Assembly (NCBI GenBank): GCA_017561575.1
Contig: JAFZBS010000009.1
Span: forward strand, 1-59,874
Reading direction: 5' to 3'
Origin: Candidatus Saccharimonadota bacterium
GTDB lineage: Bacteria > Patescibacteriota > Saccharimonadia > Saccharimonadales > Saccharimonadaceae
DNA: 59,874 nt
Shown: positions 18,027 through 55,205 of the stretch, one piece after another
Layout: each line of letters starts with the position of its first letter
How positions within the stretch are numbered: the stretch's first letter is position 1
Translations under genes and position numbers: made by a program
The notes under the pieces: model-generated
Databases searched by the model: none
What the model saw: only the letters and a program-made list of their open reading frames with translations
Told to the model about the DNA's origin: nothing

Positions 18027-18773
18027 ATGATTAAATTCACAATTATCACGTTATTTCAAGAGGCGATTGAACCATATCTCAAGACTTCCATGATGTGGAA
18101 GGCCGTAGACAAAGGTCTTGCTGAGTTTGATTTTGTGAATCTACGCGACTTTGGTCTTGGCCCACACAAATCTGTCGACGATACTCCTTATGGCGGTGGC
18201 GATGGCATGTTACTCCGCTGCGAACCAGTTTTTGCCGCCATTGAATCTATCAAAGAAAAAGACCCTACCGCTTTAGTTATCCTCCCGACCCCAGTCGGCG
18301 AAACCTGGACCCAAGATCTAGCGAGGAAGTTTGCATCCGGACTCGGGGCATTTCGGAGCGCGGCAGCGCGAGAATTAGCGCCGTCCGCCCGTGGCGACGG
18401 GCCGGACGGACGCGGCCCCGAGTCGGATGCAAACTTCCTCCATTACATCATTCTTTGTCCTCATTACGAAGGCTATGACGAGCGGATTTTAAGCTTGGTA
18501 GATTACAAGATTTCGCTTGGCAAATATGTCTTAACCGGCGGCGAACTCCCAGCATTAATCATCATCGATTCAGTAGTTCGTTTGATTCCGGGCGTCCTCG
18601 GCGGCGAGACCTCTGCCGAAATAGAATCATTTTCCGACGGCGACAATTTAGAGTATCCTCAATACACCAAGCCAGCCGATTTCCGCGGCATGAAAGTCCC
18701 AGATATTTTACTTTCAGGCAACCACGGCGAAATCGCCAAATGGCGCAAAGAGCATTCAGGCAAAGCCAAATAA
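18027..18773 (+). CDS. trmD: tRNA (guanine-N1)-methyltransferase TrmD, with palindromic insertion
   Basis: A 248-residue TrmD (SPOUT family, trefoil knot). Hallmarks: N-terminal IKFTIITLFQEAIEPYL, DDTPYGGGDGMLLRCEP, ILCPHYEGYDERIL, GKYVLTGGELPALIIIDSVVRLIPGVLG and the C-terminal LEYPQYTKPADF. It makes m1G37 in tRNA. About 34 residues between QDLARKFAS and NFLHYIILC (Arg/Ala/Gly/Pro-rich, including RSAAARELAPSARGDGP) are absent in the family and are encoded by the element at 18323-18440. The ATG is 7 nt after TATAAT (18014-18019), so the mRNA is probably leaderless. Confidence 0.95.
   Translation: MIKFTIITLFQEAIEPYLKTSMMWKAVDKGLAEFDFVNLRDFGLGPHKSVDDTPYGGGDGMLLRCEPVFAAIESIKEKDPTALVILPTPVGETWTQDLARKFASGLGAFRSAAARELAPSARGDGPDGRGPESDANFLHYIILCPHYEGYDERILSLVDYKISLGKYVLTGGELPALIIIDSVVRLIPGVLGGETSAEIESFSDGDNLEYPQYTKPADFRGMKVPDILLSGNHGEIAKWRKEHSGKAK
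18323..18440 (+). repeat. In-frame G+C-rich palindromic element in trmD
   Basis: GAGGAAGTTTGCATCCG (18323-18339) is perfectly inverted at 18424-18440. Then come CTCGGGGC/GCCCCGAG, the shared GGAGCGCGGCAGCGCGAG, and an apical hairpin CGTCCG-CCCG-TGGCGA-CGGGC-CGGACG. The core is read in the orientation giving RSAAAR. This is the cleanest copy, with the longest perfect host-matching arm. Confidence 0.9.
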
Positions 18774-18789
18774 AACCATTTAATAAATT

Positions 18790-20094
18790 TTACCAATCCT
18801 CGACAAGCGTAAATTCCTTGCCAGCAATCGAAACGATTGAATCTGGCTCAGCACCTAGTGATGTAAGCTCGGCTCTAATCCCCATCTTTTTCATAATATC
18901 GCGCAGACGATTCACGCTAGCATAATTGTTCATATCAGTCCTCTTGGCAAATTTCTCAATCTTTTCACCAGTTACAATAAACTTGTCATCTTCTTTCGTC
19001 ACTTTCCAGGTCGTCTTTACGGCTTCCGGTGATAAGGAGATGGTCGGCAAAGCTTCATCATCTGATGGTTCGGTAAAGTGGGCCTTATCATGCGCAGAGT
19101 TAGCTTCTGATTGTCTTTGTAAAATTACTTCACTTTTTAATTCCCTCAGCAAGTCATCTATTCCCTGATGTGCTGCTGCCGAAATCGCAAAAACCTTTAC
19201 TTCGGGGTTAATTTTCAAAATTGACGCCATCTGCATCTCTATAATTTCAGAATCGACTCCTTCACATTTGGTCAGCGCTACAACCTCTGGTCGTGAAGCT
19301 AGATCGGAATATTTTTCTAGTTCTCCCCGAATTGTTTTATAAGCTTCTCCCGCGTCATTATTATAAACATCAACAAGGTGAAGCAAAACCGCAGTTCTGT
19401 CAATATGCCGGAGAAAATCATGTCCGAGTCCCTTCCCCTCCGAAGCGCCCTCAATAAGACCAGGAATATCAGCAATCAGCAAATCTTGCTCGTCAATTGT
19501 TGCCATCCCGAGTTGTGGCGTAAGTGTCGTAAACGGATAATCGGCAATTTCTGGCTTTGCATTCGAAACCACAGAAAGAAATGTTGATTTTCCAGCATTT
19601 GGCAGACCCACTAATCCCACATCAGCTAACAGTTTTAGCTCAATTTCAGCCTCAAATTCTTCACCTGGCTCCCCTACCTCGGCAATTATTGGAGCCTGTC
19701 TTGTAGAACTTTTGAAATGTGCATTGCCAAACCCACCATCGCCACCACGAGCAATCACCGCGGTCTGGCCATCGGTCACCAAATCAGCAATAACTTTGCC
19801 ATCACGCTTTACTATTGTCCCAATTGGTACTTCAACAATCAAATCTTTGCCCGCTCGTCCCGCCGAACGCGTGCCAGAGCCATTTCGTCCATCTTCTGCC
19901 GTCAAAATCGGCGTATATCTAAAATCTATCAAAGTATTGGTATCTTTGTCTGCTTTAAAAATGATGTCTCCGCCTTTGCCGCCATCACCACCATCTGGTC
20001 CACCTTTTGGAATATAAATTTCCCGTCGAAAAGAAACGGCACCATCTCCGCCTTTACCAGCTTTTAAACTAACTTTTGCTGTGTCGCTAAACAT
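18790..20094 (-). CDS. obgE: Obg GTPase (CgtA)
   Basis: A 434-residue ObgE with the Gly-rich Obg fold (GGKGGDIIFKADKDTNTLIDF), the G domain with G1 GLPNAGKST, G3 DIPGLIEGA and G4-like ALTKCEGV, then a C-terminal OCT domain (KFAKRTDMNNYASVNRLRDIM). It acts in 50S ribosome maturation. AGGAG precedes the ATG. It converges with trmD, leaving 16 nt between the stops. Confidence 0.96.
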   Translation of the reverse strand: MFSDTAKVSLKAGKGGDGAVSFRREIYIPKGGPDGGDGGKGGDIIFKADKDTNTLIDFRYTPILTAEDGRNGSGTRSAGRAGKDLIVEVPIGTIVKRDGKVIADLVTDGQTAVIARGGDGGFGNAHFKSSTRQAPIIAEVGEPGEEFEAEIELKLLADVGLVGLPNAGKSTFLSVVSNAKPEIADYPFTTLTPQLGMATIDEQDLLIADIPGLIEGASEGKGLGHDFLRHIDRTAVLLHLVDVYNNDAGEAYKTIRGELEKYSDLASRPEVVALTKCEGVDSEIIEMQMASILKINPEVKVFAISAAAHQGIDDLLRELKSEVILQRQSEANSAHDKAHFTEPSDDEALPTISLSPEAVKTTWKVTKEDDKFIVTGEKIEKFAKRTDMNNYASVNRLRDIMKKMGIRAELTSLGAEPDSIVSIAGKEFTLVEDW

Positions 20095-53467: not shown

Positions 53468-54046
53468 ATGAAATTATTAATGCATACCTGCTGCGCTCCG
53501 TGCAGCGTTTATTGTATTGACTCGCTTCGCGCCGAAGGTATTGAGCCGACGCTATTTTGGTATAATCCAAATATTCATCCATACATTGAATATAAAACTC
53601 GTCGGGACTGTCTAAAAGAATATGCCAAAAAGGTCAACGCCGAGCTGATAATTGATGAAGAATACGGTCTTGACGAATTTTGTAAAAATGTTGTCAGCGA
53701 TATTCCTAATCGTTGTGTAAACTACTGTTATAAAAAGCGACTTACAGAGGCAGTGCGTTATGCTGCCAAAAATGGCTATGACGCTTTTACTACCACTTTA
53801 CTCGTCTCACCTTATCAAAAACACGATGAGCTAAAAAAGGTTTGTGAAGAACTCTCCAGGCTTTCTGGCGTAAAGTTTTTATACCGGGACTTTCGGGTCG
53901 GTTTCCGCGAAGGCCAAGCAAAAGCTCGCGCCGAAGGTCTCTATATGCAAAAATACTGTGGCTGTATTTTTTCCGAAGAAGATCGCTATCAGAAACAAAT
54001 CCTTCAGGACTTGAACTCTTGCGAAATAAGCAAAAATAGTATATAA
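53468..54046 (+). CDS. queH: Epoxyqueuosine reductase QueH
   Basis: 192 residues. N-terminal LLMHTCCAPCSVYCID with the CC pair, YNPNIHPYIEYKTRRDCLK, NRCVNYCYKKRLTEAVRYAA, and C-terminal YCGCIFSEEDRYQKQ. The Cys set fits the Fe-S cluster and redox pair of QueH, which reduces epoxyqueuosine to queuosine in tRNA. It is the first gene of queH-queA-tgt. Start codon 7 nt after TATAAT (53455-53460). Confidence 0.93.
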   Translation: MKLLMHTCCAPCSVYCIDSLRAEGIEPTLFWYNPNIHPYIEYKTRRDCLKEYAKKVNAELIIDEEYGLDEFCKNVVSDIPNRCVNYCYKKRLTEAVRYAAKNGYDAFTTTLLVSPYQKHDELKKVCEELSRLSGVKFLYRDFRVGFREGQAKARAEGLYMQKYCGCIFSEEDRYQKQILQDLNSCEISKNSI

Positions 54047-54053
54047 TATATAT

Positions 54054-55205
54054 ATGTTAGTTTCTGACTTTAATTATGATTTACCAGAAGAACGAATTGC
54101 CAAGTTCCCGCCAAAGGAACGTGGCACGACGCGACTTTTAGTTTTGGACCGTAAGAGTGGCGAAGTTAAAGACTCTTTCTATCGTAATCTTGATGAATTA
54201 TTAAATCCTGGTGACCTGTTGATTCTAAATGATACACGCGTGATGCAATCACGTCTGTTTTGCGAGCTCCCGGACGGCCGTGAGCGTGAACTTGTCGTGC
54301 TTGAAAAACATGGTGACGAGCCTCAACGCGTGATGTATCGCGGCAAATTGCGTGACGGAGATGTACTTTTCATCAAATTCGAGGGAATCCGGAGCGCGGC
54401 AGCGCGAGGACGAGCGCCGGCCGCCCATGGCGATGGGCCGGCCGGACGCGGCCCGAGAATTGATGAAAAGTGCATCAGAATAAAGCATATTCTCGGCAAC
54501 GGCATCGCCGAAGTCGAGTCTAAGACACCGCTTTCCGAACTCGCCGAAAAATACGGCACAGTTCCCTTGCCGCCCTATCTCCATCGCGACGCAACCGACG
54601 AAGATAAAAAACGCTATCAAACCGTCTGGGCTAAAAACATGGGTTCCGCCGCCGCTCCAACTGCCAGTTTAAATATGACAGAGGATTTGATGAAACGCCT
54701 GCAAGATAAAGGCGTGATTATCAAGTACCTCACATTACATGTCGGTCTCGGCACTTTTCTTCCAATGCGCACCGACAACGTCGAAGACCACAAGATGCAC
54801 TCCGAATGGTTTAATATCCCCGACGACACACTCGCCGAAATCAAGCACATCACGGACGGGTGGCCGAGCTTGGGGGACCCCCAGCCGAGCCTCTGCGAGG
54901 ATGGGGGAAAATGCGAGGACAGGACCCGTCCGAAGATAATTGCCGTCGGCACGACAGTCGCGAGGACTTTGGAATATTATGCCAAAACCGGCAAAACTTC
55001 TGGCGAAGACGACATTTTTATTTATCCGGGCTTTGAGTTTAAAATTGTTGATGCACTTCTGACTAATTTCCATGCACCAAAATCTACAGTTTTGATGCTC
55101 GCCAGCGCCTTTGCTGGCTGGGATCATCTCCACCATGCTTACGACTATGCTGTTAGCCAAAAATATAATTTTCTAAGCTACGGAGATTCAATGTTTATAT
55201 GTTAA
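54054..55205 (+). CDS. queA: S-adenosylmethionine:tRNA ribosyltransferase-isomerase QueA, two insertions
   Basis: 383 residues against about 345 normally. Hallmarks: [123 protein letters not shown]-like end. It adds the epoxycyclopentane unit from SAM to preQ1-tRNA. The run after LFIKFEG ([17 protein letters not shown]…) comes from the element at 54360-54476; the run after KHITDG ([17 protein letters not shown]…) from the hairpin at 54853-54932. TATAAT ends 6 nt before the ATG. Confidence 0.95.
54360..54476 (+). repeat. In-frame palindromic element in queA, core type
   Basis: Arms GATGTACTTTTCATCAAATT and inverse ending at 54476 (one T/C change, a U-G wobble in mRNA). Core GGAGCGCGGCAGCGCGAG; apical hairpin CGGCCGCCCATGGCGATGGG-CCGGCCG, where both sides of the apex changed together (CCCA/TGGG instead of CCCG/CGGG). 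Confidence 0.9.
54853..54932 (+). repeat. In-frame hairpin in queA, second type
   Basis: CGGACGGGT (54853) is inverted as ACCCGTCCG (54924-54932). CTTGGGGGACCCCCAG forms a near-perfect inner hairpin and CCTCTGCGAGG a second. The core differs from the main family but resembles the hairpin at the mnmA start (GGGGGACCCCC centre). Confidence 0.65.

What the first reader, a model, noticed from the sequence alone, without database searches (positions are those of the whole stretch)
18323..54476. Family of in-frame G+C-rich palindromic elements in housekeeping genes
Seven copies (18323 trmD, 29192 alaS, 32635 and 33233 mnmA, 34714 cysteine desulfurase, 40631 tatD, 54360 queA) share GGAGCGCGGCAGCGCGAG plus a CCCGTGGCGACGGG-like apex; 42067 typA and 5073 (intergenic) are diverged copies. 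All coding copies keep the reading frame without stops and add about 25-40 Arg/Ala/Gly/Pro-rich residues in places where the families normally have loops. Closest known analogues are Rickettsia palindromic elements, but the sequences are unrelated and the ends behave differently. I know of no described Saccharibacteria family of this type.
Basis: partly seen in the sequence, partly recalled or inferred. Interest (0 to 1): 0.95.

Follow-up and report, generated by a model that had tools for sequence, protein, structure and literature searches.

The report
Gene-invading DNA hairpins in Saccharibacteria
Small GC-rich DNA hairpins have spread through housekeeping genes of Saccharibacteria, many of them from ruminant guts, keeping the reading frame wherever it was checked, and each copy is closed by a stem that matches the local gene rather than the element.

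Summary
The window holds seven strong in-gene copies and one intergenic copy of a 72-nt palindromic core; typA is a marginal match. The genome has 15 copies. (1) The core is the repeated unit: of 95 pairs of copies with near-identical cores, 92 lie at unrelated sites. (2) The outer stem is specific to each site and its arms complement each other (79 of 80 copies tested); at trmD one arm is native gene sequence and the other its inverted copy. (3) Other palindromic families use the same loops of trmD, tatD and queA. No stop or frameshift appeared in 134 distinct loops parsed. Relatives lack the inserts, so they are not ancestral loops. The exact 18-mer is nearly genus-restricted; the covariance model reaches seven genera of one family. 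Neither a Y1 transposase nor a reverse transcriptase tracks carriers. Best explanation: a selfish repeat working like Rickettsia palindromic elements, translated as a loop insert, with arms made and kept by replication template switching. Mobility and translation are inferred from sequence; the switching step is the least certain. New variant of a known kind.

The parts
18323..18440 (+). family A hairpin in trmD; core 18349-18420; left arm native, right arm its inverted copy
29192..29311 (+). family A hairpin in alaS (gene on - strand); core 29219-29290, identical over 68 nt to the core of mnmA copy 1 but with unrelated arms
32635..32755 (+). family A hairpin, mnmA copy 1 (gene on - strand); core 32663-32734; read in a rarely used frame
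33232..33366 (-). family A hairpin, mnmA copy 2 (same strand as gene); core 33262-33333; outer arms carry a GGGGTGGC / CAGGACCCC bulge motif
34714..34829 (+). family A hairpin in the cysteine desulfurase gene (gene on - strand); core 34739-34810; relative G098 has a different hairpin at this site
40628..40761 (+). family A hairpin in tatD (gene on - strand); core 40662-40733
   Evidence: (I22)
54360..54476 (+). family A hairpin in queA; core 54385-54456
42067..42183 (-). diverged or related-family hairpin in typA with site-specific arms; marginal match to the family A model
5073..5197 (-). diverged family A hairpin between a GAPDH-like gene and an rpsG-like gene (names by eye); core 5099-5168
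33742..33829 (-). another palindromic family (called G here) in the 5' part of mnmA, in frame; relatives elsewhere in this and other genomes
54853..54932 (+). family G hairpin in a second loop of queA, in frame

Best explanation
The 72-nt core is a small non-autonomous selfish palindrome that reaches new sites by copying and is kept only where it stays in frame and its peptide is accepted in a loop. It is translated as part of the host protein. On or after insertion, the GC-rich palindrome makes a replicating strand fold back: its 3' end at the core's own complementary edge (CTCGGGG/CCCCGAG) primes copying of the gene sequence next to it, so that roughly 15-25 nt of one flank is duplicated in inverted form (or one flank is overwritten by the inverse of the other), closing a long, often imperfect hairpin. 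The same switching later re-matches the arms and sometimes inverts the whole element. Shown by sequence comparison: the core at unrelated sites, empty sites, frame keeping, site-specific complementary arms, a native left arm at trmD, opposite orientation in relatives. Inferred: movement by copying, translation, template switching. Unknown: what, if anything, acts in trans.
For: Core repeated: 95 pairs of copies differ by at most 2 of 68 nt; 92 of them lie at unrelated sites, 9 of these with no difference; cross-arm scores in the 92 have median 6 and maximum 12, own-arm scores median 15 and minimum 9. Arms local: own left/right arms exceed the 95th percentile of non-orthologous cross pairs in 79 of 80 copies, the 99th in 76 of 80. 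trmD: the 'AR.FA' codons of the left arm are in empty orthologues and the right arm is their reverse complement up to native CATTAC. Hairpin length minus net gain is 12-30 nt at six sites, about one arm (ends; gains). Core helices: 96.4% of cells paired, 301 cells changed on both sides against 86.6 shuffled. Frame: 134 distinct loops of trmD, tatD and queA parsed, none with a stop or a length off 3. Of 46 coding copies with exactly two open frames, phase 1 among them, 42 use phase 1. Inversion: tatD loop of L200 aligns to the reverse complement of L191 at score 109 (direct 31); trmD loop of L151 to that of L141 at 73 (direct 25). Arm pairing favours one codon phase in 40 of 65 copies. Template switching that creates, repairs and inverts hairpins is published (abstracts PMC8794818, PMC8604942).
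Against: No event was caught in the act: comparators are about 70-92% identical. Arms are mostly imperfect: the longest perfect run outside the core edge has median 10 nt, at most 18, in 84 copies (27 in L327), aligned identity median 0.78. At queA both arms overlap native codons, so inverted insertion and overwriting cannot be told apart. Some copies keep a CCT bulge in the arms (mnmA copy 2, L064, L109), which a plain copy would not leave; nesting in family G is one reading. Arm identity does not fall with core divergence (rho about 0, n 84). A first arm test, with windows too far out, gave 53 of 84 above the 99th percentile and 41 of 84 with the own arm ranked first. Copies at one gene are partly shared by descent, so counts are not independent; opposite orientation at trmD could be two insertions. 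A loop with a broken frame would have escaped my parser; the only distinct locus not parsed (G058 queA) is open without stops. Expression was not tested.
Confidence: 0.6

Rival explanations
1. A dedicated enzyme (REP-type Y1/HUH transposase, reverse transcriptase or another recombinase) moves the elements and the arms are a by-product of its chemistry.
For: Exact core copies and small hairpins near the core edge resemble targets of HUH enzymes. Reverse transcriptases are common in the genus (60 of 99). One carrier, G087 with 6 copies, has a Y1_Tnp fragment.
Against: Y1_Tnp was found in 3 of 99 genomes; 51 of 52 carriers have none. RT in 30 of 52 carriers and 30 of 47 non-carriers, p 0.55; G025 (99% complete) has 8 copies and neither. 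DDE transposases and other recombinases were not tested.
Confidence: 0.26
2. The elements insert into the loops of pre-existing hairpins; the arms are the older stem.
For: Some arms contain the end motif of another palindromic family (GGGTGGC/CAGGACCC), as nested insertion would leave.
Against: Short trmD, tatD and queA loops are mostly unstructured: 1 of 48 has z of -4 or less, against 66 of 86 long ones. Net gains are about one arm too small.
Confidence: 0.15
3. The inserts are removed before or during protein making (RNA splicing, or ribosomal bypassing as with mitochondrial byps), the arms bringing the ends together.
For: Long hairpins closed by site-specific stems would suit it.
Against: Removal needs no frame, yet none of 134 distinct parsed loops is off frame, and 42 of 46 copies prefer one of two open frames. 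Partly deleted remnants stay in frame (L148, L180, L273).
Confidence: 0.05
4. Arms arise by ordinary compensatory substitutions selected for hairpin stability.
For: Core covariation; arms with many mismatches and short perfect runs.
Against: Arms differ at unrelated sites yet pair equally well beside identical cores, and one copy in another genus has a 27-nt perfect arm (L327); both are hard to reach stepwise.
Confidence: 0.09

Closest known systems
Rickettsia palindromic elements (RPEs; reported also in Wolbachia)
   Same: 100-150 nt palindromes in ten families, inserted in frame in unrelated genes, different families at one gene, QueA among the hosts (passages of PMC10969869 and PMC3767692).
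   Different: Other phylum; GC-rich core with GGAGCGCGGCAGCGCGAG and a CCCGTGGCGACGGG apex; locus-specific arms, which the passages I read do not mention; no Rickettsia sequence was compared here.
Coding palindromes of nematomorph mitochondria
   Same: Inverted repeats in coding sequence with both arms coding; biased codon phase; template switching proposed (abstract and discussion of PMC6649704).
   Different: No shared mobile core is described in what I read; perfect arms up to 284 bp; organelle.
Template-switch hairpins and inverted-repeat homogenisation
   Same: Makes reverse-complement copies next to a point, repairs arms, inverts spacers (abstracts PMC8794818, PMC8604942).
   Different: Mutations without a repeated mobile core.
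REP elements with Y1 (RAYT) transposases
   Same: Short conserved palindromes in many copies.
   Different: 20-40 bp and extragenic by name (start of abstract of PMC3733652 in the listing; the RAYT link is recalled); 51 of 52 carriers here have no Y1 hit.
Magnusiomyces mitochondrial byp elements
   Same: Several palindromes in protein genes (mentioned in PMC6649704).
   Different: Untranslated and bypassed; here frames are kept.

Membership tests
Rickettsia palindromic elements | palindrome of about 100-150 nt inside ORFs without breaking the frame | tested here: met
   hairpins of 116-135 nt at the window's seven in-gene sites; 65 of 84 full copies in long open frames; 134 distinct loops without break
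Rickettsia palindromic elements | sequence homology to an RPE family | not tested
   no RPE sequence was compared
Rickettsia palindromic elements | occurrence in Rickettsiales | tested here: not met
REP/RAYT | cognate Y1 transposase in the genome | tested here: not met
   none in the window's genome; 3 of 99 genomes, one of them a carrier (G087)
MITE | direct target-site duplication | tested here: inconclusive
   by eye none at trmD, where an inverted copy of one flank is seen; other sites too diverged
MITE | ends shared with an autonomous transposon | not tested
   no transposon survey beyond Y1 and RT
byp (translational bypassing) element | not translated, free to hold stops or break the frame | tested here: not met
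   (by frame, not by protein)
Rfam RNA family | match to a curated model | tested here: not met
   only a tRNA reaches its threshold in the window
template-switch hairpin | one arm is a reverse-complement copy of adjacent native sequence | tested here: met
   at trmD; at other sites only the lengths agree

The most novel reading that the evidence does not exclude
A class of mobile element that needs no transposase: the core spreads by replication template switching, and each insertion writes an inverted copy of the host gene beside itself, so that the element builds a custom hairpin at every site and feeds new in-frame peptides into essential proteins, some of which outlive the element as ordinary loops.
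Probability: 0.3. Interest if true: 0.93.

Novelty: new variant of a known kind. Interest (0 to 1): 0.82.

Why it matters
In the papers I saw, selfish palindromes inside protein genes are reported from Rickettsia and Wolbachia. A second large natural experiment, with dozens of genomes, several families, empty sites and decaying remnants, makes two open questions testable by comparison: how such repeats move without an evident enzyme, and how often mobile DNA supplies new protein loops. The site-specific arms may record the mechanism.

Tried and rejected
Ancestral loops: rejected, orthologues without the segment. Chance: rejected. Known RNA family: none at Rfam's thresholds. Y1 transposase and reverse transcriptase as drivers: no association, except that one of the three Y1 genomes (G087) is a carrier. 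Carriage outside Saccharibacteria: 33 records with other names and 3 viral contigs that hold the 18-mer were scored with the model: 4 records reach 27-33 bits, the other 32 sources nothing at E 0.01, against 65 bits or more for nearly all real copies. One further record titled Nomurabacteria (L079) is genuine at 70.8 bits; it is the contig of G284, which the genome tool places in the window's family.

Failures: a home-made stem scanner found nothing (I think because of the side hairpin). A first arm comparison used windows too far out. An AlphaFold model of TrmD on 5 sequences was poor, mean pLDDT 40.7, not used. In one search, at 3 mismatches, the reversed control pattern matched 12 times against 13 for the pattern, so that setting does not discriminate; I use (1 mismatch: 11 against 0 in this genome). 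G009 was dropped as an empty comparator because it holds two queA copies.

Rows dropped: of 137 distinct segments, 27 loci were set aside by title or as viral and 26 of the remaining 110 copies failed my apex pattern, leaving 84; by titles and handles the 84 are Saccharibacteria. One search used 80 of the 84. queA: 41 loci gave 36 distinct loops; 3 were duplicates and 2 (both G058) were not parsed.

Literature: searches listed no paper that describes such elements in Saccharibacteria, judged from titles and abstract starts; only the held open-licence library was searched. Ogata 2002 is not held.
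Full report
What is there. The 18-mer GGAGCGCGGCAGCGCGAG occurs seven times exactly in the window and 11 times with up to one mismatch in the genome, the reversed control none. A model of the 72-nt core finds 15 copies in the genome, which is 622,696 bases and about 80% complete. The core has a small side hairpin, an apical stem ending in CCCGTGGCGACGGG, and complementary edges CTCGGGG/CCCCGAG. Over 109 copies (104 distinct) the three helices hold 96.4% paired cells, with 301 cells changed on both sides against 86.6 in shuffles and 12-47 when partners are slid; the alignment was fitted to that structure, which helps it.

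The arms are local. Outside the core each copy continues as a stem whose two arms pair with each other but differ from site to site. In 79 of 80 copies the match of a copy's own arms exceeds the 95th percentile of arms of different, non-orthologous copies, and in 76 of 80 the 99th. The arms are not perfect: median aligned span 35.5 columns at identity 0.78, longest perfect run median 10 nt, maximum 18. Conversely, 92 of 95 pairs of near-identical cores lie at unrelated sites and their arms do not match across sites; in the window, alaS and mnmA copy 1 share an identical 68-nt core and nothing evident outside it. So the core is the repeated unit and the arms belong to the site.

Empty sites. 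The relative G098 has no 18-mer, though a diverged piece related to the mnmA hairpin lies at G098:C5:21975-22097. It lacks the insert at trmD, alaS, both mnmA sites, tatD, queA and typA, but holds a different hairpin at nifS. In trmD, empty genomes read AR.FA, a few residues, then HYIILC; filled genomes keep AR.FA as the left arm, then the core, then the reverse complement of the AR.FA stretch, then HYIILC. Hairpin length exceeds net gain by 12-30 nt at six sites, about one arm. In queA both arms overlap native codons, so overwriting of one flank is as likely there. Solved TrmD, QueA and MnmA show gaps where the inserts lie.

A shared habit of several families. By rough motif matching, trmD, tatD and queA loops hold seven palindromic types (A, A2, B to F, labels mine), family A in both orientations; 73 of the 134 loops carry no label, 48 of those being short. 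Loops were chosen from top hits and from genomes with visible gaps, so proportions are not population frequencies. Of 86 long loops 66 fold with z of -4 or less against simple shuffles; of 48 short ones 1 does. Not all long loops are palindromic (for example L163-L167). Remnants such as L148, L180 and L273 are partly deleted yet in frame.

Frame and hosts. Of 84 full copies, 65 lie in frames open for at least 30 residues on both sides; about a dozen have no long frame (13 by the rule). All 30 host frames that I scanned, of the 65, match NCBIfam families at 1e-10, some below the curated cut-off: MnmA, PcrA, PriA, LigA, Der, ObgE, DnaX, Tgt, TsaD, ArgS, LepA, UvrC, aminopeptidase N, P-type ATPases and others. 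Where exactly two frames are open and phase 1 is one of them, 42 of 46 use it; the peptides are Arg/Ala/Gly/Pro/Ser-rich. This speaks for translation and against splicing or bypassing.

Spread. 52 of 99 same-genus genomes carry the 18-mer with up to one mismatch; the reversed control matched once, in G077. In a sample of 246 genomes of the order 17 have it exactly: 16 of 27 of the window's genus, and 1 of another genus of the same family; none in other families. The covariance model finds the family in 13 of 121 genomes of the taxonomic family, in 7 genera. Of six loci looked at after that search, three in other genera lie in frame with long arms (der, valS and priA by eye), one of the window's genus is not in a long frame, and two at contig ends were mis-centred and not read. 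Ca. Nanosyncoccus alces carries a copy in the aminopeptidase N gene. Many titles are ruminant gut MAGs.

Mechanism. Fold-back copying at the core edge explains arms that match the local gene and elements lying inverted in relatives (L191/L200 in tatD, 91.6% identical outside; L141/L151 in trmD, 90%), though two insertions could also give the latter. The process is established elsewhere (abstracts of PMC8794818 and PMC8604942; discussion of PMC6649704). It does not by itself explain how cores reach new genes. Y1 transposase and reverse transcriptase do not track carriers. Other enzymes were not tested. The CCT bulge in some arms and the lack of correlation between arm identity and core divergence remain unexplained.

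Verdict. A real and widespread family of protein-coding palindromes, undescribed as far as my searches show, working like Rickettsia palindromic elements but not shown to be related, with site-made arms as a new feature. I hold the anatomy at high confidence, translation at fairly high, template switching at moderate, enzyme-free mobility as open.

Noticed in passing
window 33742-33829 and 54853-54932: A second palindromic family in mnmA (5' part) and in another loop of queA, in frame, with ends GGGTGNC/CAGGACCC and relatives in other fetched loci.
   Followed up: partly
window 47559-47706: Long AT-rich hairpin, 26-nt arms at 92% complementarity, z about -10, between two convergent ORFs; perhaps a terminator or another palindromic element.
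   Followed up: no
window 125-1138, 35196-37412: ORFs sharing repeated segments (families D3, D5, D6, D8), probably duplicated domains.
   Followed up: no
window 16196-17853: Repeat-rich stretch (GCCATAGATTT-like units) spread over several overlapping frames, possibly a frameshifted repeat protein.
   Followed up: no
L079 (JAISHF010000002.1), contig of G284: A record titled Nomurabacteria carries a genuine copy in a der-like gene; the genome tool places that genome in the window's family.
   Followed up: partly
L208 (G072) and L279 (G079), tatD: Identical filled tatD loop in two genomes whose trmD regions are 90% identical, suggesting recent exchange.
   Followed up: no
G000:C3:20292-20837 and other genus genomes: Reverse transcriptase matches are common in this genus (60 of 99 genomes); kind not determined.
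   Followed up: no
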